A DNA stretch of 64,000 bases from contig JAFUBX010000035.1 in NCBI GenBank assembly GCA_017459985.1, positions 34,169-98,168 on the forward strand. Direction: 5' to 3'. The notes beneath the pieces were generated by a model, which did no database searches, was not told the DNA's origin, and saw nothing but the letters and a program-made list of their open reading frames with translations. This document shows, piece by piece, positions 13,440 through 43,450 of this stretch. Position 1 is the stretch's first letter; each line of letters begins with the position of its first letter. Origin of the DNA: Parasporobacterium sp. (GTDB lineage Bacteria; Bacillota; Clostridia; Lachnospirales; Lachnospiraceae). A program made the position numbers and the translations under genes.

Positions 13440-14972
13440 ATGGAGAAAATATTAGTATTGGATTTCGGCGGCCAATATAATCAGCTGATTGCCCGCCGGG
13501 TCCGGGATCATCATGTATATGCAGAAATCATGCCCTACAATGGGATCACAGTGGAGCAGATCAGGGAAGAAGGATACCGGGGAATCATTTTCACCGGCGG
13601 CCCCAACAGCGTCTATGATAATACGTCGCCCCATTATGATCCGGCGGTACTGGATCTGGGAATTCCGATTCTCGGGATCTGCTATGGCTGCCAGCTGATC
13701 GCTTATATGGCCGGCGGAAGGATTGAAGGGGCCATGGAATCTTCGGAATATGGCATGGTGACCTTGTACAGCGGTCCTTCTGTTCTTTATGACGGAATCC
13801 CGGACGAGAGCATCGTCTGGATGAGTCATACGGATTACGTAAACCGTCTTCCGGAGGATTATACGATCACGGGAACCACAGCCAAATGCCCCTGTGCTTC
13901 CATGGAAAATGCCTCCCGCAATATTTACGGAGTGCAGTTCCATCCGGAGGTGACCCATTCCCAATATGGGAATCAGATCTTGTACAACTTCCTGTATAAG
14001 GTCTGCAAATGCAGCGGCGACTGGAAAATGGAACATTTCATCGACGATACGGTGGAGCAGCTGCGGGAAAAGATCGGAAATAAAGGCGTGGTGCTGGGAC
14101 TTTCCGGCGGGGTTGACTCCTCTGTGGCAGCCGCCCTGTTGTCCAGGGCTGTTGGAAAACAGCTGACCTGCGTGTTTGTGGATCAGGGACTGATGCGCAA
14201 GGATGAGGGAGATTTTGTTGAAAACACCTTTACCCGTCTGTTTGATATGAACTTTGTACGGGTTAATTGCCAGGAAGCGTTTCTGGAGAAACTGAAAGGG
14301 GTCTCAGAACCGGAAGAGAAACGCCGGATCATCGGAACGGAATTTTACAAAGTGTTCTGGGAAGAGGTCCGGGCCCGTTACAGCGGAGGCTATTTTGCCC
14401 AGGGTACGATCTATCCGGACCGTATCGAGAGCGGCAAGGGTGACGCCGCCACCATCAAGACCCATCACAATCAGGTAAAAATGCCGGAGGACATCACCTT
14501 CGACGGCGTCATCGAGCCTCTACAGGACCTGTTCAAGGACGAGGTACGCAAGGTCGGGGAGAAGCTCGGGCTTCCCCGGGATCTGGTCTGGAGGCAGCCC
14601 TTCCCGGGACCGGGCCTCGGTGTCCGTGTAATCGGCGAAGTGACCGCTGAGAGGATCCGGATCCTTCAGGAGGCGGACTGGGTGCTTCGGGATGAAGTGG
14701 CCCGTTCCGGATATGACGAGAAGCTGGCCCAGTTCTTCGCCGTGCTGCCCGGAGTGAAAACAGTAGGCGTCATGGGCGATCACCGGACCTATGAAGAGCT
14801 GATCGCGATCCGCGCCGTGACCACCGACGATTTCATGACCGCTGACTGGGCGAAGATCCCCTATGATCTTCTGGGCCGGATCTCAAACCGGATCATCAAC
14901 GAAGTCGAGCACGTCAACCGGGTCGTTTACGATATCACCCAGAAGCCTCCGGGAACCGTGGAGTGGGAATAG
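13440..14972 (+). CDS. guaA: GMP synthase (glutamine-hydrolysing)
   Basis: A 510-residue two-domain enzyme converting XMP to GMP with glutamine and ATP. The class I glutamine amidotransferase domain (1-195) has nucleophile Cys81 (ICYGCQL), His168 and Glu170 (FHPEVT). The ATP pyrophosphatase domain follows with the PP-loop SGGVDSS (222-228), and the C-terminal dimerisation domain ends with the family-typical KPPGTVEWE. ATG 13440, preceded by AAAGGA, is preferred to TTG 13425, which would add five residues. Downstream there is a strong terminator. Confidence 0.97.
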   Translation: MEKILVLDFGGQYNQLIARRVRDHHVYAEIMPYNGITVEQIREEGYRGIIFTGGPNSVYDNTSPHYDPAVLDLGIPILGICYGCQLIAYMAGGRIEGAMESSEYGMVTLYSGPSVLYDGIPDESIVWMSHTDYVNRLPEDYTITGTTAKCPCASMENASRNIYGVQFHPEVTHSQYGNQILYNFLYKVCKCSGDWKMEHFIDDTVEQLREKIGNKGVVLGLSGGVDSSVAAALLSRAVGKQLTCVFVDQGLMRKDEGDFVENTFTRLFDMNFVRVNCQEAFLEKLKGVSEPEEKRRIIGTEFYKVFWEEVRARYSGGYFAQGTIYPDRIESGKGDAATIKTHHNQVKMPEDITFDGVIEPLQDLFKDEVRKVGEKLGLPRDLVWRQPFPGPGLGVRVIGEVTAERIRILQEADWVLRDEVARSGYDEKLAQFFAVLPGVKTVGVMGDHRTYEELIAIRAVTTDDFMTADWAKIPYDLLGRISNRIINEVEHVNRVVYDITQKPPGTVEWE

Positions 14973-14980
14973 CATTCGAA

Positions 14981-15022
14981 CCCCGCACTCCCTTTGTATT
15001 AAAAGGGCTTGCGGGGATTTTT
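14981..15022 (+). terminator. Rho-independent terminator after guaA
   Basis: Outer stem CCCCGC (14981-14986) with GCGGGG (15011-15016), inner stem CCCTTT with AAAGGG, followed by ATTTTT. It ends the purine cluster just before the next promoter. Confidence 0.88.
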
Positions 15023-15031
15023 ATGCCAGGT

Positions 15032-15081
15032 TTGACTCAAACTATAACATTTGCTATAATAAATATGAAATAAATGTTATA
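15032..15081 (+). promoter_or_regulatory. Promoter with a 10-bp inverted-repeat operator spanning the -10 box
   Basis: TTGACT (15032-15037), 17 bp, TATAAT (15055-15060) is a near-perfect promoter. A perfect inverted repeat TATAACATTT (15043-15052) / AAATGTTATA (15072-15081) brackets the -10 box and reaches the ribosome binding site AAAGGAGG (15081-15088). This is the expected geometry for autorepression by the HTH domain of the gene at 15095. Confidence 0.75.
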
Positions 15082-15094
15082 AAGGAGGACCGCC

Positions 15095-15976
15095 ATGGAA
15101 AGCCTCATTTTCGAAATCAGAAGCCGATTGAATGCCAGCCAGGATGACCTGGCAAAGATGGTCGGTGTCTCCTTCGCAACGGTGAACCGGTGGGAAAATG
15201 GCCATTCCATTCCAAACAAAGCAGCGCAGTTGCGTTTGTATGATGTTTGTAAAACACAGGGGGTCGATTTTGAAGATATTATCTGGAAAAAGATTGGGAA
15301 AACAGTATCCGGTCTGAATGTAGCTTCAGAAAGGTTGATTCTTTATCATGGCTCCAAATCCGGAATCAGGGGGCCAATTGCTCCGATCAGTAGAGAACGC
15401 TGTGACTTTGGCCGTGGTTTCTACATGGGTACGGAACCATATCAGCCTTTAACGTTGATCAGTGACTTTGAGGATTCAAAGTTTTATGTGATCAGTCTGG
15501 ATTTGACGGATCTGCGTGTTCGGAAGGTAAGCCCGGATATCGAATGGGCCCTGCTGGTAGCGTTTAACAGAGGGAAGATGGATGAAGCCAGAGGAACAGC
15601 AATGTATGATCGTTATATGCAGATGGCCAAAGGGTACGATGTGATTGTTGGAAGTATTGCAAACGACCGGATGTTTTATGTGCTGGACAACTTCTTCCTT
15701 GGGAATATCACGGATAAAGCACTTGTGATGAGTTTATCGGCGCTCCAACTGGGACAGCAGTATGTTGCGATCACCGGGAAGGCCTGTAAGCATGTAATTA
15801 TTGAGACAGAAATAGAGTTATCCTATCTGGAACGCATTTTCCTTCGCGATCTTAGTGAATCCAACCGCGTAAACGGCGTCAACCTGGCAAATGATATTTG
15901 CAGGAATTATCGCAGGGAAGGCAAGTTCTTTGATGAGATTCTGAAAGAGGCAGCAGGAGGTGAAAACCGTGGATAG
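15095..15976 (+). CDS. XRE-type HTH fused to a DUF3990 (ADP-ribosyltransferase-like) domain
   Basis: A 293-residue protein. Residues 3-60 form an XRE/Cro-type helix-turn-helix (SQDDLAKMVGVSFATVNRWE). From about 80 onwards it matches the DUF3990 pattern: LYHGS (83-87), DFGRGFY (104-110), FNRG (157-160) and YDVIVGSIANDR (181-192). DUF3990 is thought to be related to ADP-ribosyltransferases (family knowledge, not shown here). The stop overlaps the next gene, implying translational coupling. The most likely reading is a toxin-antitoxin-like or stress module in which the HTH autoregulates the operon. Enzymatic activity is unproven and the domain might instead act as a ligand sensor. Confidence 0.75.
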   Translation: MESLIFEIRSRLNASQDDLAKMVGVSFATVNRWENGHSIPNKAAQLRLYDVCKTQGVDFEDIIWKKIGKTVSGLNVASERLILYHGSKSGIRGPIAPISRERCDFGRGFYMGTEPYQPLTLISDFEDSKFYVISLDLTDLRVRKVSPDIEWALLVAFNRGKMDEARGTAMYDRYMQMAKGYDVIVGSIANDRMFYVLDNFFLGNITDKALVMSLSALQLGQQYVAITGKACKHVIIETEIELSYLERIFLRDLSESNRVNGVNLANDICRNYRREGKFFDEILKEAAGGENRG

Positions 15977-16379
15977 TATTCAATTGAAACTTTGTGATAT
16001 CCAGGGACGCCTATTCGAAAAATCGACTGCCTACGCCAGCGAAAGTTTTATCCGGGATTTCATGAATTCGGAGGTAGCCAGGCATTTGGACTCTCCGTAT
16101 AACAAGTTACAATGGATGGGCGAAGAATACCTCCTGGAAGAACTGAAAGACGAAAAAGAACTGAGCGTGGAAGGTGAAAAGTACAATCCGGATGTTCTGT
16201 ACTGGATCGGATACCTGTACCGCTATTGGGCAAGTTCGCGAGGCGAAAGAAGCAAAAGAATCTATCGGCTGGCACCGGCAAAAACGTTGAAAAGAAATTA
16301 TTTCGCGTTTCATACATTCGATCCTGATGTTGCGATCGATGATTTGATAGAGATAGGCAGACAAAGACAAACAAAATAG
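15969..16379 (+). CDS. Small partner protein of the HTH-DUF3990 gene, family not recognised
   Basis: A 136-residue soluble protein. GTG 15969 is chosen because AGGAGG (15955-15960) lies 8 nt upstream; an earlier in-frame GTG at 15960 would overlap that site. It overlaps the preceding gene by 8 nt, so expression is coupled. Sequence seen: N-terminal helices, a central YNPDVLYWIGYLYRYWAS segment rich in aromatics, then a basic stretch and a C-terminal acidic helix. No catalytic motif is visible. By position and size it is a candidate antitoxin or accessory factor to the DUF3990 protein; that role is inference. Confidence 0.7.
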   Translation: MDSIQLKLCDIQGRLFEKSTAYASESFIRDFMNSEVARHLDSPYNKLQWMGEEYLLEELKDEKELSVEGEKYNPDVLYWIGYLYRYWASSRGERSKRIYRLAPAKTLKRNYFAFHTFDPDVAIDDLIEIGRQRQTK

Positions 16380-16397
16380 ATGGGATGAGGAATACTG

Positions 16398-16508
16398 ATG
16401 ATAAACGAAACAATTCAGCAGCTGTTTGACCGGAAGTCCATCAGGGTTTATCTGGATAAAGATATTCCGGAAAAAGACAAGGCCTTGATCCTGCAGGCTG
16501 CGGTCCAG
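16398..16508 (+). pseudogene. Nitroreductase N-terminal remnant
   Basis: From ATG 16398 the frame encodes INETIQQLFDRKSIRVYLDK and then IPEKDKALILQAAVQ, the start of a nitroreductase-family flavoprotein (the RKSIR segment contributes to FMN binding). After about residue 37 similarity ends, and 32 nt later repeat element B begins; beyond the element no nitroreductase sequence is found. A complete family member has roughly 170-250 residues, so about four fifths is missing. The gene was cut by insertion plus deletion or by recombination at the repeat. It lies 18 nt after the DUF3990 partner gene and may have been in its operon. Confidence 0.75.
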
Positions 16509-16539
16509 ATCCGTCTTTCCCGCAGGAGGAAAACGCTCT

Positions 16540-16748
16540 ACCGCAATGCTGCAGTTTTTCGTCAGGCTCTGCCGAAAATCTCACGCAATGCTGCAGTTTT
16601 TCGGCAGAAGGTCCAGATTTTACCGCAATGCTGCAGTTTTTCGGCAGATTTTACCGCAATGCTGCAACTTTTCGGCAGACTTGCCGAAAATCTCACGCAA
16701 TGCTGCAATTTTTCGGCAGCCCCTGTCGAAAACATCGAGCATTGCGGT
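16540..16748. repeat. Modular BOX-like repeat element, copy B
   Basis: Bounded by ACCGCAATGC (16540-16549) and GCATTGCGGT (16739-16748). It contains five GCAATGCTGCA units (16543, 16585, 16625, 16656, 16697). Units 2 and 5 carry the full stem with TGCCGAAAA upstream and TTTTTCGGCAG downstream; units 3 and 4 begin like the element's left end (TTTACCGCAATGC). Copy B differs from A and C in unit number and order but has the same 3' module (CTGTC, AAAACATCGAGC). It occupies the site where the nitroreductase remnant breaks off. Confidence 0.85.
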
Positions 16749-16811
16749 AACCGACCGGAATGCGGGACTGCTAGGCAAAAAAATATCAATTCCTTTGCAA
16801 GATGCGGTTTT

Positions 16812-16845
16812 ATTGTATAATACAATCACCTGATTGTGGTATAAT
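16812..16845 (+). promoter_or_regulatory. Extended -10 promoter with two overlapping palindromes
   Basis: TATAAT at 16840-16845 with TG one base upstream (16837-16838) is an extended -10. Upstream lie the perfect palindromes ATTGTATAATACAAT (16812-16826) and CAATCACCTGATTG (16823-16836), overlapping by four bases; the first contains another TATAAT. Probably the regulated start of the permease-kinase transcript at 17025. Confidence 0.55.
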
Positions 16846-16852
16846 GCTGACT

Positions 16853-16924
16853 GTGGACGTGCGGGAAAGTATGCGGATCCGCAAGAGACGTGGACGCGCG
16901 GGAAAGACTGCAAATCCGGAGGAA
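16853..16924 (+). repeat. Imperfect 37-bp direct repeat in the leader of the permease-kinase gene
   Basis: GTGGACGTGCGGGAAAG (16853-16869) recurs as GTGGACGCGCGGGAAAG (16890-16906), and ATCCG follows both at a similar distance. The rest of the leader to 17024 is purine-rich with no recognisable gene; a small basic open frame there has no supporting ribosome site. Confidence 0.55.
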
Positions 16925-17024
16925 AAACCGCAGAGCGTTACGCAAAAGATGCAAAAGATCCGAAGGATGCGAAAGATACAGAGACACAGCAGTGAACGTG
17001 AGGGATTGAAGGAGCAGGGCAGGA

Positions 17025-19862
17025 ATGTCTGAGTCAGGACAGCAGCAGAGCATGCCCGGAAGTGATTCCGGGAAAACCGGATACGGATTTCACCGGTATT
17101 ACGGGACCGTCGATGTCTGGGCGGTCGCATTTGGCTGCATCGTCGGATGGGGCGCTTTTGTCATGCCGGGAACCACGTTTCTGCCGGTCGCTGGTCCCAT
17201 CGGAACCTTGATCGCCATGGCCATCAGCGTCGCCATTATGCTGGTGATCGGAAGCAACTATTCCTTCCTGATGATCCACCGGCCGGGAACCGGCGGCGTA
17301 TATTCTTATACGAAAGAAGCCTTTGGCAGGGACCATGCCTTCTTATGCTCCTGGTTTCTGTGTCTGTCCTATCTGACCATTGTGTTCCTGAATGCGACGG
17401 CACTGTTCATTGTCGTCAGGACCATGGCAGGAAATATGCTGCAGGTAGGCTATCACTATAACATCGCGGGAGAAGAGATCTATCTGCCGGAAGTGGCCGT
17501 TTCCGTTGGAGCGCTGGCGCTGATCGGCCTCCTGTTCATCAAGGCCAAGGCAATTCTGCAGAAGCTCCATACTTTCCTGGCTATCATACTGCTGCTGGGC
17601 ACAGTTCTGATCGCGGTGATCTGTATTCCTCATCTTTCCGCGGAAGTATTTACCCATGCCTTCGGGATCCGGGGGTTTCATGGGGCATATGCCATCTTCA
17701 GCATCGTCCTTCTGGCTCCCTGGGCCTTTGTGGGATTTGATGTGATCTCCATGGAGACCTCCCATTTTAAATTCCGTATCAGCAAAGCAAAATGGATCAT
17801 TGTACTTTCGATCCTGTTCAGCGGCCTTGTATACACCGTGATGACCTTTGTCAGCATTTCTGCGATTCCGGACGGATATGCTTCCTGGGCGGATTATCTG
17901 AATCAGATCGGAAATATCAGTACGGTAGCTTCAGTACCCAGCTTCTTCGCGGCCCGTCAGATCATGGGGCCGGCGGGACTGGTGATTATGGGGATCACGG
18001 CGCTGGCGGCGATCCTGACCGGCATGATCGGAGCATACCGGGCAACCACCCGGGTGCTGTCCACCATGGCGGAAGACAATATTTTATCTGACAAATTTCT
18101 GAATACCAGTCACAGCATCGTCTTTATCATGGGGATCTCCATCGTGATTTCCTTCCTGGGACGCAATGCCCTGGACTGGTTTGTAGAGCTTACCTCCTTC
18201 GGAGCCATCGTCGGATTTGGTTACACCTCCGCCGCGGCATGGAAGATGGCCAGAACCGAGAATAACCGGCGTACCCTGCTGACGGGAATCATCGGAACGG
18301 TGATCTCCTGCGCGTTCGCAGTCGTGCAGCTGATTCCGAGACTGACTGCCATGGAAACCATGGGCGCTTCCTCCTTTCTCGTTCTGTCTTTGTGGTGCCT
18401 GCTGGGATTTTTGTTCTATTGGCGGACCGTCAGAAACAGCGCGCTTTCCCAGTACAGTGCCATTTCCACTTCCGGAGCGGTGCTGTTTACATTGCTTTTG
18501 TACTCCAGTCTGATGTGGATCGCCAGGCGGCTGTCCCAGGCGCAGGGACCGGAGGAGATCCGGCAGATCCTGATGCGGGAAGGCATTATTCTTCTGATCG
18601 TTATATTTATCGGCCTTCTGGGGATGCTTTATATCCAGAATCTGGTGCGTCGCAAGCACGAGGTTCTGGAACGGGAAAGGATACGGGCGGTGGAGAGCAG
18701 TCTGGCCAAGAGCCAGTTCCTCTTTAATATGTCCCATGATATCCGGACTCCCATGAATGCCATCATCGGGTATGCCAATATCGCCAGACAGGAAAATACG
18801 TCTCCGGTAATCGGAGAATATCTGTCCAAGATCGATACCTCCAGTCAGCATCTGCTGTCGCTGATCAATGATATTCTGGAAATGAGCCGTATCGAGAGCG
18901 GGATCATGGAACTGGAGTTTGCTCCGGAGGATCTGTGCCGGATCATTGTAGAAATCAGGGATCTGTTCTCGGAACAGATGAAGTCCAAAGATCTGGATTT
19001 CAGTATTCACACTTCCCAGATCCGCCACCGGTACGTCTGGTGCGACCGGAACAATCTGAACCGGGTGTTTCTGAATATCATCAGCAACGCCTACAAATTT
19101 ACCCCGGCAGGAGGGACCATCAGTGCATCAGTCTGGGAGATCAGCAGTCCGGAAGAGGGAATGGGATCCTATGAGATCCGGATCCGGGACAGCGGTATCG
19201 GAATGTCCCGGGAGTTCTCGGAGAAAATGTTCCACGCATTTGAACGGGAACGGACCTCCACCGTCAGCAAAACGGAAGGGACCGGTCTGGGACTTGCCAT
19301 CACGAAGAGCATTATCGATCTGATGGGAGGCACCATCGAGGTGATCACCTCCCCCGGTGCGGGAACGGAATTCATCATCCGGGTAAACTTCCGGCTGGCC
19401 TCCGAAGAAGAAGTGGAAGCGGCGAAGAAGAAGACACCCGGAGCGGAACCCGGACAGATCGATTATTCCACTGTAAGACTTCTGGTGGTGGAGGATAATG
19501 AGATCAACCGGGAGATTGCCCTGATGATCCTGTCCCAGGAGGGATTTCAGCTGGAAACGGCGGAAAACGGTCAGGAGGCGCTGGATCTGGTACGGGCCTC
19601 GCAGGCCGGATATTACGACCTGGTCCTGATGGATATCCAGATGCCGGTGATGGACGGATACAGCGCCACACGGGCGATCCGGGCACTGGAGGATCCGGCC
19701 CTGGCTTCGGTTCCCATCGTAGCCATGACAGCCAATGCATTTAAAGAAGACGAGGATGCCGCCCGGGAGGCAGGGATGCAGGGACATATTGCCAAACCGC
19801 TGGACGTACATAAAATGATGACGGTGATATCGGAAGTTTTGACAAATCACAGAAAGGCCTGA
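17025..19862 (+). CDS. Amino acid permease-histidine kinase-receiver fusion
   Basis: A 945-residue membrane protein. Residues 25-530 are an APC-superfamily permease: about 12 hydrophobic segments, starting with DVWAVAFGCIVGWGAFVMPG, which carries the Gly-rich TM1 break of the family. A final helix (about 520-545) leads into a cytoplasmic kinase: H-box FNMSHDIRTPMN with His571, N-box NRVFLNIISNAYKF, G-boxes DSGIGMS and GTGLGLAITKSI. A receiver domain ends the protein, with phospho-acceptor Asp870 (LVLMDIQMPVMDG) and a C-terminal Lys (IAKP). Such transporter-kinase fusions (compare CbrA, a different permease family) are thought to sense transported solute. The next gene starts 6 nt later with its own receiver domain, a likely output partner. 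Confidence 0.9.
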   Translation: MSESGQQQSMPGSDSGKTGYGFHRYYGTVDVWAVAFGCIVGWGAFVMPGTTFLPVAGPIGTLIAMAISVAIMLVIGSNYSFLMIHRPGTGGVYSYTKEAFGRDHAFLCSWFLCLSYLTIVFLNATALFIVVRTMAGNMLQVGYHYNIAGEEIYLPEVAVSVGALALIGLLFIKAKAILQKLHTFLAIILLLGTVLIAVICIPHLSAEVFTHAFGIRGFHGAYAIFSIVLLAPWAFVGFDVISMETSHFKFRISKAKWIIVLSILFSGLVYTVMTFVSISAIPDGYASWADYLNQIGNISTVASVPSFFAARQIMGPAGLVIMGITALAAILTGMIGAYRATTRVLSTMAEDNILSDKFLNTSHSIVFIMGISIVISFLGRNALDWFVELTSFGAIVGFGYTSAAAWKMARTENNRRTLLTGIIGTVISCAFAVVQLIPRLTAMETMGASSFLVLSLWCLLGFLFYWRTVRNSALSQYSAISTSGAVLFTLLLYSSLMWIARRLSQAQGPEEIRQILMREGIILLIVIFIGLLGMLYIQNLVRRKHEVLERERIRAVESSLAKSQFLFNMSHDIRTPMNAIIGYANIARQENTSPVIGEYLSKIDTSSQHLLSLINDILEMSRIESGIMELEFAPEDLCRIIVEIRDLFSEQMKSKDLDFSIHTSQIRHRYVWCDRNNLNRVFLNIISNAYKFTPAGGTISASVWEISSPEEGMGSYEIRIRDSGIGMSREFSEKMFHAFERERTSTVSKTEGTGLGLAITKSIIDLMGGTIEVITSPGAGTEFIIRVNFRLASEEEVEAAKKKTPGAEPGQIDYSTVRLLVVEDNEINREIALMILSQEGFQLETAENGQEALDLVRASQAGYYDLVLMDIQMPVMDGYSATRAIRALEDPALASVPIVAMTANAFKEDEDAAREAGMQGHIAKPLDVHKMMTVISEVLTNHRKA

Positions 19863-19868
19863 ATATCG

Positions 19869-22800
19869 ATGCTGAAAAGTCATGAAAAATTTCACTCCGC
19901 AAACGGAAAACGCAGGATCCTGATCGTAGATGATGAAGCCATCAACCGGGAGATCCTGGGAATGTATCTGCAGGACGATTATGAGATCCTTTACGCCGGG
20001 GACGGAAACGAGGCGATGACGTTGATCCGGGAGAACCGGGATACCCTGTCCCTGATGCTTCTGGATATCCTGATGCCGGTTATGTCCGGCATGGAAGTGC
20101 TGAAGGCGCTGAAGGATGACCCGGAATTATCCAAGATTCCAGTGATCATCCTGACCGCGGACCAGGAAGCCGAAGTGGAATGCCTGTCCCTGGGCGCGGC
20201 GGATTTTATCCCCAAGCCGTATCCGAACGTGGATGTGGTCCGGGCCCGGATCACAAGGACCATCGAGCTTTCGGAGGACCGGGATATCATCCAGTCCACA
20301 GAGAGGGACGTTCTGACCGGCGTATACAACAAGGAATATTTCTATCGCTACGCTCAGCAGTACGATCAGTACCATAAGGATGTTCCCATGGACGCGGTCC
20401 TTGTGGATGTCAATCATTTCCATATGATCAATGAACGGTACGGCAAAGCTTACGGGGACGAGGTGCTTCGCCGGATCGGAGAACGGGTCGGAGAGATTAT
20501 CCACAAAGATGACGGGATCGTATGCCGCAGGGAAGCAGATACATTTATGATCTACTGTCCCCACAGGGAGGATTACAGGGAGATCCTTGACTCAGCCGCG
20601 GAGGGACTAGCGGGGGATGAATCCGCCGGCAACCGCATCCGGCTGCGGATGGGGATCTATTCCGAGGTGGACAAAACCATCGACATCGAGCGGCGTTTCG
20701 ACCGTGCCAAGATGGCGGCGGATTCGGTGAAGGGCAGCTTTACCCGCACTATCGCATATTATGACAATCAGCTGCATGACAGGGAGCTGTATTCGGAGCA
20801 GCTGATCGAGGATTTCTACAAGGCCATCGAAGAAAAGCAGTTCGTGGTTTATTATCAGCCCAAATATAATATTACGGGGGAGGTTCCGTTCCTGTCCAGT
20901 GCGGAGGCGCTGGTCCGCTGGAATCATCCGACTCTGGGCATGATCAGCCCGGGAGTATTCATTCCCCTGTTTGAAGAGAATGGTCTGATCCAGGATCTGG
21001 ACAATTATGTATGGCGGGAGGCCTGCCGGCAGATCCGGGAATGGATCGACCGGCTAGAGCAGTACGTTCCGGTATCGGTCAATGTTTCCCGCATTGATCT
21101 GTATGATCCGGGACTGCTGAATAAATTCCAGGATCTGATCCGGGAGTACGGTCTGTCCTACCGGGATATTCTGCTGGAGGTCACCGAGTCTGCCTATACC
21201 CAGGATGCGGAACAGATGGTGGATGTGGTCGGGAAGCTGAGAAAACTGGGCTTCCAGATCGAAATGGATGATTTCGGTACAGGGTATTCCTCTCTGAATA
21301 TGGTGTCCACGCTGCCCTTTGACGTAATGAAACTGGATATGCAGTTTATGAAGAGCGCCTTCAAGGAGGGAGGCGATACCCGGATGCTGGAGCTGATCCT
21401 GGATATCGCGGATTATCTGGATGTGCCGGTGGTTGCGGAGGGCGTGGAAACTGAGGACCAGTTAAATGCCCTGAAGACCATGGGGTGTGATCTGGTGCAG
21501 GGGTTCTATTTCTCCAGGCCGGTGCCGGCGGAAGAATTCGAAGTCTTCCTGGAACAGAGAAAGGCTGCGGACAAGGCACTTTCCGAAGAAGCTATTATGT
21601 CTGCCGAGGAGGCGGAGGCACAGACGGAGGAGAAGGCTCTTGCCGAAAGTCTGGAAAATGATTCCGGAGCGATAGACACGGCGATGCCGGAAATGGAAGA
21701 GACCAAAACGGCGTCTGCCGGCGGCTCTGAAGATCCGGAGAAACAGGAAAATCCCGCTGCGAAGGATCCGTCCGTGAAAGGCCGCAGATCCGGTCTGCAT
21801 CTGCGGACGGCAACCTTCTTCTTTGTGGCAATCGCTGTGGTTGCCGCCGCAGCGCTTTTTATCACGGATATCTCCGTTACCCGTGGATTTCAGCGGATGA
21901 AAAATGCCAGCGACCGGCATCTTGCGGCCCAGCTGGCAGCTTCGGATATGGAGTCGGGATCGGATTATCTGACTGACCGGGTCCGCTGCTTCGTGGTGAC
22001 CGGGGAACTGGAATATCTGAAGGACTTTTTTGAGGAAGTAGATGTCACCAAACGAAGGGATCATGCCCTGGAGGATCTGGAGACTCTGACGGAGAACAGC
22101 AATCAAAGCGCCTTTGCCAGCATGAATGCGGCGCTGGATCTGTCCAATGAACTGGTGGAGATCGAATATCTTGCCATGAGGCTGAAGCTGGAAACCGGTG
22201 ATTATGATATGTCCCAGGTACCGGAGGAGATTTCCTCCATTTCCCTGTCAAAGGAGGATCTGGCCCTCAGCAGGGAGGAGATCAACGAGAAGGCCCAGAA
22301 TCTGGTCTTCGACAATAATTACATGCATTATAAAGACCGGATCCGGGAAAACGTCAACCAGTGCACCCAGGCACTGATCCGGTCCTCCAGCCAGGAACTG
22401 GAGGAGGCTTCCTCCAAAATGGCGCTTCTGGTGGGGATCCAGACGATCATGACGATTGTATTCCTGCTGATTATTCTGGCTCTGGTGATCTTCATCAACG
22501 AGCTGATCCGGAAGCCCCTGACCCATATGGTGGATCTGATGCGGGCGGGCAAGACCATTCCGCCCACCGGCGCAGAGGAACTGCAGTTCGTTACCAGGAC
22601 CTATAATACGATCCTGAATGAAAATAAAGTGGCCAATGAGAAACTGAAACACGAGGCATCCCATGATGCGCTGACGGGCCTTCTGAACCGGGGCGCCTAT
22701 GATCTGCTGATGCAGACGGTGGATACCAGCCACATTGCGCTGATCATTGTGGACGTGGACTATTTCAAATCGGTCAATGACACCTACGGCCATGCGGTGG

Positions 22801-42778: not shown

Positions 42779-42858
42779 AGTCCGGCAGCCTTGTATCCGC
42801 TTTTTTCCGCTGCTGATTTCAGCCATCGCTGCTAACAAGGTCCGATCAGGCGGAGTTT

Positions 42859-43077
42859 ACCGCAATGCTGCATTTTTTCGGCAGCCACTGTCGAAAATCT
42901 CACGCAATGCTGCAATTTTTCGTCAATGAGGCTTTCAGAGGGCCATTTCTGCCAAAAATCTCACGCAATGCTGCATTTTTTCGTCAAAATCCGGGTCCTG
43001 GAGGACTGTCTGCCGAAAATCTCACGCAATGCTGCAATTTTTCGTCAGCCTCTGTCAAAAACGTCGTGCATTGCGGT
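42859..43077. repeat. Modular BOX-like repeat element, copy C
   Basis: Bounded by ACCGCAATGC (42859-42868) and GCATTGCGGT (43068-43077). It contains four GCAATGCTGCA units (42862, 42904, 42965, 43026). Unit order and the sequences between units (GAGGCTTTC, AAAATCCGGGTCC, GGACTGTCTGCC) match copy A closely over the whole 219 bp, so A and C share a recent common source. Confidence 0.85.
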
Positions 43078-43450
43078 ATGGCCAACGTCCGGGCCGGACC
43101 ATCTATGAAATTATTGGAAAATCCTATCCCTGTTTCCTTAAAAATGACAGGGATAGAAAATGACGATTATTTTCCGGATGGTCCAAATAGCATGATGGAA
43201 GCAAGCAGGGATGAAGCCGCCGGCAACCTTGGTTTTGCTGCCCCTCCGCCGCACCCCCCTTCAGACGCCGGCCTTCACTGGATTTTAATAATTTATAAAA
43301 AATACACAAGAACACTTGTAAATCTTCCGAAATTCTATCGAAAACTTCCAAAATTATTTACGACAACCGGGGATTATAGTATAAATGAACTGTAATTTTA
43401 TTTTCATATTGGGACCGGACTGCGCTGCAGCCGGTCAGAAGGGAGAATGT
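43078..43450. other. Non-coding region upstream of the secreted protein
   Basis: No gene found. It contains an AAAATGACAGGGATAG segment after a near-complementary CTATCCCTGTTTCC (about 43124-43156, possible hairpin), and TATAGT at 43375-43380 as a possible -10 box with no clear -35. Transcription of the gene at 43451 probably begins near 43387. Confidence 0.35.

What the first reader, a model, noticed from the sequence alone, without database searches (positions are those of the whole stretch)
15095..16379. Candidate toxin-antitoxin-like pair: HTH-DUF3990 with a coupled unknown partner
The first protein joins an XRE DNA-binding domain to a DUF3990 domain, a family thought to be ADP-ribosyltransferase-like, with LYHGS, DFGRGFY and YDVIVGSIANDR motifs. 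The second, 136-residue protein starts inside the first gene's stop and is of no family I recognise. The pair has its own strong promoter and operator and is followed by a broken gene. Fusion of the DNA-binding function to the putative toxin rather than to the antitoxin is unusual, and the small partner may be a new antitoxin type.
Basis: partly seen in the sequence, partly recalled or inferred. Interest (0 to 1): 0.75.

Follow-up and report, generated by a model that had tools for sequence, protein, structure and literature searches.

The report
Self-repressing ADP-ribosyltransferase toxin-antitoxin-like pair
A gut or rumen bacterium carries a two-gene switch, most likely a poison enzyme that holds its own off-switch for DNA plus a small antidote protein, belonging to a large and little-studied family that appears to hop between unrelated bacteria.

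Summary
Window 15095-15976 encodes a 293-aa HTH-DUF3990 protein (A); 15969-16379 a coupled 136-aa partner (B). The partner is not without family: its C-terminal half is DUF3791-like (19 of 19 B proteins scanned) and its N-terminal half resembles the third gene of DUF3791|DUF3990|C modules. PADLOC models of unpublished candidates (PDC-M42, PDC-M13) already hit both genes, so the kind is listed though untested. Added here: (i) a footprint of two operator sites over the -10 box and start; (ii) in 397 Lachnospiraceae genomes 33 of 33 uncut A loci have B directly behind them, while six complete or nearly complete B genes lack an intact A, four with A remnants, as expected if A is toxic; (iii) H85, Y110 and Q222 in 58 of 58 DUF3990 proteins; (iv) a sister clade carries the HTH on the partner; (v) 87.5% DNA identity of A between Succinimonas and an Erysipelotrichaceae MAG. 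Best reading: an autorepressed ADP-ribosyltransferase toxin-antitoxin module, perhaps anti-phage.

The parts
15032..15060 (+). sigma-70-type promoter TTGACT-N17-TATAAT of the pair
   Evidence: 11 of 12 consensus matches; -35 and -10 conserved in 17 aligned upstream regions, mean majority fraction 0.78 and 0.94 versus 0.40 just upstream
15043..15058 (.). operator site O1 (imperfect palindrome TATAACATTTGCTATA overlapping the -10 box)
   Evidence: phylogenetic footprint, majority fraction 0.84; the TATAACA...TGTTATA pair occurs at one place in the genome
15073..15081 (.). operator half-site O2 AATGTTATA between -10 box and ribosome-binding site
   Evidence: phylogenetic footprint, majority fraction 0.95 versus 0.51 and 0.50 in the flanking stretches
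15095..15976 (+). gene A: 293-aa HTH-DUF3990 protein, presumed ADP-ribosyltransferase toxin and autorepressor
   Evidence: Pfam HTH_3 4.8e-8 and DUF3990 3e-28; H85, Y110, Q222 in 58 of 58 proteins examined
15116..15217 (+). HTH (XRE type) domain, A residues 8-41
15335..15796 (+). DUF3990 domain, A residues 81-234, with H85, Y110, Q222
15797..15973 (+). C-terminal extension of A (residues 235-293), absent from the short DUF3990 proteins in alignment A6
   Evidence: alignment A6; part of this tail is what the A remnants keep
15969..16379 (+). gene B: 136-aa partner, presumed antitoxin (longer GTG start at 15960 possible)
   Evidence: start aligned across homologues; PADLOC PDC-M42B 9.3e-10
16044..16160 (+). 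N-terminal half of B resembling the third gene (C) of DUF3791|DUF3990|C modules
   Evidence: profile of 8 C proteins hits at 20.7 bits, best of 900 shuffled sequences 7.9; hhalign E 3e-5, probability 73%
16254..16355 (+). DUF3791-like C-terminal half of B
   Evidence: PF12668 in 19 of 19 B proteins at E<=1, best 4.9e-7; window copy 3.6e-4 and below the curated cut-off
16398..16817 (+). ORF behind the pair: nitroreductase-like start run into a repeat (16528-16750); neighbour, not part of the module
   Evidence: weak hits, repeats

Best explanation
An autoregulated toxin-antitoxin module whose toxin is a putative ADP-ribosyltransferase. Gene A joins an XRE-type HTH to a DUF3990 domain with an H85-Y110-Q222 triad; gene B, started inside A's stop codon, is a fusion of two small modules (C-like and DUF3791-like) that binds and silences A. 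The A-B complex, through A's HTH, sits on O1 and O2 over the -10 box and start region and represses its own promoter. When B is lost, by proteolysis or during phage attack, A would use NAD+ to modify an essential target and stop growth. Shown by sequence: gene anatomy, conserved operator, pairing, one-sided decay, invariant residues, closely similar copies in different phyla. Inferred: binding, repression, NAD+ use, toxicity, trigger and role in defence.
For: In 397 Lachnospiraceae genomes, 33 of 33 A loci that cover >=200 of 290 positions and are not cut by a contig end have B starting within 122 bases of A's matched end (paired by eye; two rows of G478 are cut, one of them followed by B). 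Six complete or nearly complete B genes lack an intact A (G098, G152, G537, G547, G604, G479:C19); four keep an A remnant: the tail in G098 and G152 and, read by eye, in G547, and in G537 a 106-residue ORF that has lost the middle of A in frame, Y110 and Q222 included; G152 also keeps the O1 sequence. H85, Y110, Q222 in 58 of 58; HY-[E,D,Q] is the triad given for the anti-phage ART CmdT (PMC11618068, passages). DUF3990 lies in Pfam's ART clan (PMC7955679, passage) and forms the C-terminal end of a Serratia Rhs protein (PMC4524185, passage). Operator footprint. A and B distance matrices of 16 loci correlate, r 0.944, 0 of 5000 permutations as high. HTH on the partner in the sister clade. Cross-phylum similarity.
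Against: Complete or nearly complete solitary B genes without a clear A remnant exist: G604, G479:C19, and L005, L010, L016. A broken A without B exists (G121). The six-to-zero asymmetry is small (0.5^6 = 0.016 if losses were independent and equally likely), A was searched at a stricter threshold than B, and several of the B genes counted are themselves rows of the profile used (A8). The window-type operator is not in all relatives: exact in 7 of 15 full-A loci, and not seen upstream of L022, L076 or the distant HTH-type loci printed. The correlation of A and B distances would also arise from plain joint inheritance. PADLOC candidates are untested. No evidence of toxicity. The immediate window neighbours (guaA, a permease-kinase gene) are not defence genes.
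Confidence: 0.65

Rival explanations
1. B is not only a neutraliser but an activator or folding partner: A is inert alone, B (or one half of it) is needed to fold or dock it, and release of one half triggers activity, as in tripartite CmdTAC, where CmdT needs CmdA.
For: The arrangements I read keep two small modules (C and DUF3791) besides DUF3990, as separate genes or fused, and one fuses DUF3791 to the toxin (L100). CmdT alone did not accumulate and was not toxic; CmdT with CmdA was (PMC11618068, passages).
Against: B genes kept after loss of the A core fit a neutraliser more simply. In L036 no C gene was found right behind DUF3990.
Confidence: 0.15
2. A dedicated anti-phage abortive-infection system (PADLOC PDC-M42/M13 type) in which the HTH or B senses the phage, rather than a plain toxin-antitoxin pair.
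For: PADLOC models hit both genes; four of the 14 loci whose neighbours I listed have a PADLOC-hit neighbour: L006 PDC-S05, L007 retron RT piece and SoFic, L008 AbiE, L018 HEC-01; PDC-M13 is counted 3324 times in a rumen survey (PMC13356809, passage).
Against: Neighbours were picked by eye and there is no background control; the window copy's immediate neighbours are not defence genes; PDC models are unpublished candidates (PMC11811056, passages). Compatible with the best explanation rather than exclusive.
Confidence: 0.12
3. A transcription regulator that senses NAD+ or ADP-ribose through a DUF3990 ligand domain, with B as co-regulator; not a toxin.
For: HTH at the N-terminus and a conserved operator, as in ligand-gated repressors.
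Against: The operator pair occurs at one place in the genome (exact matches with a 15-30 base gap only), so no other target was found; H85, Y110 and Q222 are invariant; relatives lack the HTH or carry it on the partner; DUF3990 also ends a T6SS Rhs protein.
Confidence: 0.08

Closest known systems
PADLOC PDC-M42 (candidate, unpublished)
   Same: DUF3990 gene followed by a partner; A hits PDC-M42A (1.1e-9) and B hits PDC-M42B (9.3e-10) over residues 12-128 of a 138-position model
   Different: The A model fits the sister clade far better (L099 1.8e-40), where the HTH is on the partner; the B model fits the window B somewhat better (9.3e-10 versus 1.1e-7 for L099's partner). In the window the HTH is on the DUF3990 protein
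PADLOC PDC-M13: DUF3791 | DUF3990 | C three-gene module
   Same: same DUF3990 domain (PDC-M13B 3.5e-18); the two small genes correspond to the two halves of B; a copy with a frameshifted DUF3990 lies in the same genome (L002)
   Different: three genes, no HTH, short DUF3990 without the C-terminal extension
CmdTAC (mRNA ADP-ribosyltransferase toxin-antitoxin-chaperone)
   Same: HY-[E,D,Q]-type triad, toxin with small partners, ART chemistry presumed
   Different: no SecB-like chaperone gene seen here; relation by sequence not tested; no HTH mentioned in the passages seen
DarTG (recalled)
   Same: ART toxin with a cognate antitoxin
   Different: DarG carries a macrodomain (recalled); Pfam finds none in B
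Classical type II pairs with XRE antitoxins (HigBA, HipBA; recalled)
   Same: two-gene operon, palindromic operator over the promoter
   Different: there the HTH is on the antitoxin; here it is on the presumed toxin

Membership tests
DUF3990 (PF13151) | score above the curated cut-off over the whole domain | tested here: met
   98.8 bits versus 32.2, profile 1-150 of 152
ADP-ribosyltransferase superfamily | conserved H, Y and E/D/Q catalytic positions | tested here: met
   H85, Y110, Q222 in 58 of 58; that Q222 is the third catalytic position is judged by motif, not structure
ADP-ribosyltransferase superfamily | ART fold with NAD-binding cleft | not testable with these tools
   structure prediction switched off; no solved relative by sequence
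DUF3791 (PF12668) | score above the curated cut-off | tested here: not met
   window B 20.9 bits versus cut-off 25; 19 of 19 B proteins hit at E<=1, best 4.9e-7: related, not filed as a member
Type II toxin-antitoxin system | two-gene operon with consistent pairing | tested here: met
   33 of 33 uncut A loci have B
Type II toxin-antitoxin system | autoregulation through an operator at the promoter | tested here: inconclusive
   operator footprint present; binding not shown
Type II toxin-antitoxin system | toxin inhibits growth and partner protein neutralises it by binding | not testable with these tools
   needs expression experiments
PADLOC PDC-M42 | adjacent genes hitting PDC-M42A and PDC-M42B | tested here: met
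   1.1e-9 and 9.3e-10; PADLOC's own system thresholds were not applied
CmdTAC | SecB-like chaperone gene in the operon | tested here: not met
   the ORF close behind B gives weak nitroreductase hits and no SecB hit

The most novel reading that the evidence does not exclude
The toxin itself is the repressor. Because the HTH sits on the toxin here and on the partner in the sister clade, free toxin rather than free antitoxin reports the state of the complex at the promoter, and anything that pulls A off its operator, such as phage DNA or a phage repressor, would at once free toxin and de-repress the operon: a toxin-antitoxin circuit with inverted conditional regulation. The two halves of B would act as separate locks.
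Probability: 0.2. Interest if true: 0.7.

Novelty: new variant of a known kind. Interest (0 to 1): 0.5.

Why it matters
DUF3990 modules are common and, as far as I could find, untested: DUF3990 is in 113 of 200 sampled Lachnospiraceae genomes, PDC-M13 is counted 3324 times in a rumen survey (PMC13356809, passage), yet full-text searches of the open library found four papers with DUF3990, one with DUF3791 and one with the Pfam accessions, and the passages I saw do not test such a module (PMC7955679, PMC4524185, PMC12165300, PMC13391275; PMC10763514 seen in the listing only). Most papers of subscription journals, and bioRxiv preprints, are outside that library. The arrangements collected here show which parts travel together and give one compact pair, with a mapped operator and named candidate catalytic residues, on which toxicity, neutralisation and the role of a toxin-borne DNA-binding domain can be tested.

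Tried and rejected
Second copy of B in the genome (C44): rejected; contig C44 is 99.98% identical to window 15885-21604 and is a near-duplicate contig, not a second locus.

Mobile carriage on plasmids or phages: two plasmid records and two phage records matched A, all weak and partial, and one viral contig at 30% identity over residues 81-222; no evidence that the pair rides on these.

Empty site: the nearest genus relative by guaA (85% identical) has unrelated genes behind guaA and carries its own distant pair elsewhere, so no insertion boundary could be drawn.

Structured RNA: no Rfam match at gathering threshold in 14900-17100. Solved relatives by sequence: for A only HTH-type and chance-level hits, none for the DUF3990 profile, chance-level for a short DUF3990; none for B, chance-level for its profile.

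The 156-aa partner of L042, L043, L046 and L050 as a DUF3791-C fusion in reverse order: not supported by profile comparison (against B) nor, for L042, by Pfam; left open.

My own small DUF3791 profile (6 sequences) did not clearly match B: best 9.9 bits (L087; window 1.2) against a best shuffled score of 8.9, hhalign E 0.032 and 0.0015. The DUF3791 link rests on the Pfam model. For the C profile 7 of 18 B rows beat the best shuffle and 11 do not.

A first count of 50 proteins for the catalytic residues contained 12 that a script had picked by an H/Y motif pattern; the eight loci that this pattern had dropped were added back and keep H85, Y110 and Q222; G106, called invariant, varies in five of those eight.

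Two literature searches on toxins with DNA-binding domains returned nothing, so how unusual that fusion is in print was not established.

Full report
What is there. The window (from a 3.53-Mb draft genome, 131 contigs) encodes at 15095-15976 a 293-residue protein A with an XRE-type HTH (residues 8-41) and a DUF3990 domain (81-234), and at 15969-16379 a 136-residue protein B whose GTG start lies inside the end of A. GC content falls from 0.51-0.60 over guaA to 0.43-0.46 over the pair and returns to 0.51-0.57 beyond 17000. The pair sits between guaA and a weakly nitroreductase-like ORF start that runs into a repeat.

What B is. B has no full-length Pfam or NCBIfam family, but its C-terminal half hits DUF3791 in 19 of 19 B proteins scanned (best 4.9e-7; the window copy is below the curated cut-off). 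Its N-terminal half matches a profile of eight third-gene proteins (C) from DUF3990 modules at 20.7 bits, where 900 shuffled sequences reach at most 7.9; 7 of 18 B rows beat that, the 11 more distant ones do not; hhalign gives E 3e-5, probability 73%. One C protein itself weakly resembles DUF3791 (L035, E 0.0071; two others scanned do not), as does the C profile (hhalign E 0.0005, probability 32%), so B may be two related small domains in tandem. A three-gene cousin with a frameshifted DUF3990 lies elsewhere in the same genome (L002).

What A is. DUF3990 belongs to Pfam's ART clan (PMC7955679, passage). In 50 distinct DUF3990 proteins H85, D104, G106, G108, Y110, W151, R159, D182 and Q222 are invariant. 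Twelve of the 50 had been picked by an H/Y motif; adding the eight loci that this motif had dropped leaves all but G106 invariant in 58 of 58 (G106 in 53). The H...GxGFY...Q pattern agrees with the HY-[E,D,Q] triad described for CmdT (PMC11618068, passages). One relative, L100, also hits ART-PolyVal below its cut-off (1.5e-4). The fold could not be tested.

Regulation. Aligning the 83 bases up to the start codon of A from 17 loci shows conservation of the -35 box, of O1 over the -10 box, and of O2 before the ribosome-binding site (majority fractions 0.78, 0.84, 0.95), against 0.40, 0.51 and 0.50 in the stretches around them. L022 was left out of that alignment; its upstream region lacks the motif. 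The exact TATAACA...TGTTATA pair is in 7 of the 15 full-A loci and at one place in the own genome. More distant HTH-type members show other palindrome-like repeats in front of A (for instance around AACTTGTTTG in L078, L082 and L084; by eye), as if operator and HTH diverged together. Autorepression by A's HTH is the likely arrangement, inferred, not shown.

Pairing and decay. In 397 Lachnospiraceae genomes 35 have an A match at E<=1e-30, in 37 rows. Two rows are fragments of broken A (G067 with a broken B; G121 without B) and two (G478) are cut by contig ends, one of them followed by B; the other 33 all have B. Of the 43 best B rows (E up to 1.9e-39), ten have no such A: C44 is the near-duplicate contig, G096 and G083 have another DUF3990 in front, G582 is at a contig end, and six are complete or nearly complete B genes without intact A. 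Four of these six keep an A remnant: the tail in G098, G152 and (by eye) G547, and in G537 an ORF of 106 residues that has lost the middle of A in frame; G152 keeps the O1 sequence as well. Weaker B rows were not sorted in full; of those fetched, L091, L092 and L135 are partial B genes without A. Of the 24 loci found with B as query (blind to A-only loci), 15 have a full A; L005, L010 and L016 have a complete B and no clear A remnant, L004 and L021 a broken B, L026 and L027 a fragment, and L020 and L025 begin at a contig end. This one-sided decay fits a harmful A and a harmless or useful B.

Arrangements. DUF3990 occurs as DUF3791|DUF3990|C (L035, L037, L038, L041, L101), DUF3791-DUF3990|C (L100), DUF3990|B without HTH (L074, L081, L085, L086, L087, L090), HTH-DUF3990|B (window type), and DUF3990|B-HTH (L099 and L122-L134: 13 of 13 fetched for their partner length have that gene order, and the window HTH profile finds the HTH in 11 of 13). 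L136 has a partner-like gene in front of DUF3990. The HTH thus appears on either partner; whether it moved or was captured twice was not tested.

Spread. B (profile A2, E<=0.001) is in 25 of 200 Lachnospiraceae genomes, 2 of 14 of the genus including the window's own and 1 of 249 genomes of the phylum sample, the window's own, yet also in records labelled Succinimonas and Succinivibrionaceae (Gammaproteobacteria), Coriobacteriaceae and Erysipelotrichaceae. The A genes of Succinimonas amylolytica DSM 2873 and an Erysipelotrichaceae MAG share 87.5% of bases. A and B distances correlate at r 0.944 over 16 loci. Transfer as a unit is the natural reading, though most of these records are MAGs, where misbinning is possible.

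Defence. PADLOC models PDC-M42A/B and PDC-M13 hit the pair. PDC names are described as unpublished candidates (PMC11811056, passages). I listed neighbours for 14 loci, scanned ten hand-picked neighbour proteins with Pfam and seven of them with PADLOC; loci L006, L007, L008 and L018 have PADLOC-hit neighbours. Without a background control this is suggestive only.

Verdict. An intact-looking member of a widespread, listed but untested family; a variant with the repressor domain on the presumed toxin.

Noticed in passing
L002:1216-2217 (own genome, contig C127): A three-gene DUF3791|DUF3990|C module whose DUF3990 gene is frameshifted, in the same genome as the window.
   Followed up: partly
window 16528-16750, also 1506-1729 and 42849-43078: A dispersed repeat family (unit about 38 bases with CGCAATGCTGCAGTTTTTCGGCAG as core) interrupts the ORF behind the pair and recurs at two more places in the window.
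   Followed up: no
G000 contig C44 (L031): A 5720-base contig 99.98% identical to window 15885-21604: near-duplicate contig in the assembly.
   Followed up: yes
window 17025-19862: A 945-residue protein that seems to join an amino-acid-permease-like membrane part to a hybrid histidine kinase with receiver domain (read by eye from the translation).
   Followed up: no
L042, L043, L046, L050: DUF3990 followed by a conserved 155-156-residue partner; no Pfam hit for the one scanned (L042); a further partner type.
   Followed up: partly
L007:90-1984: The pair starts 145 bases behind an ORF that matches the C-terminal part of a retron reverse transcriptase (RT_II-A, 6.2e-27) and is followed by a SoFic-like gene.
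   Followed up: no
L078, L082, L084 and L079, L080, upstream of A: Distant HTH-DUF3990 genes carry their own, different palindrome-like repeats upstream (seen by eye): possible co-divergence of operator and HTH.
   Followed up: no
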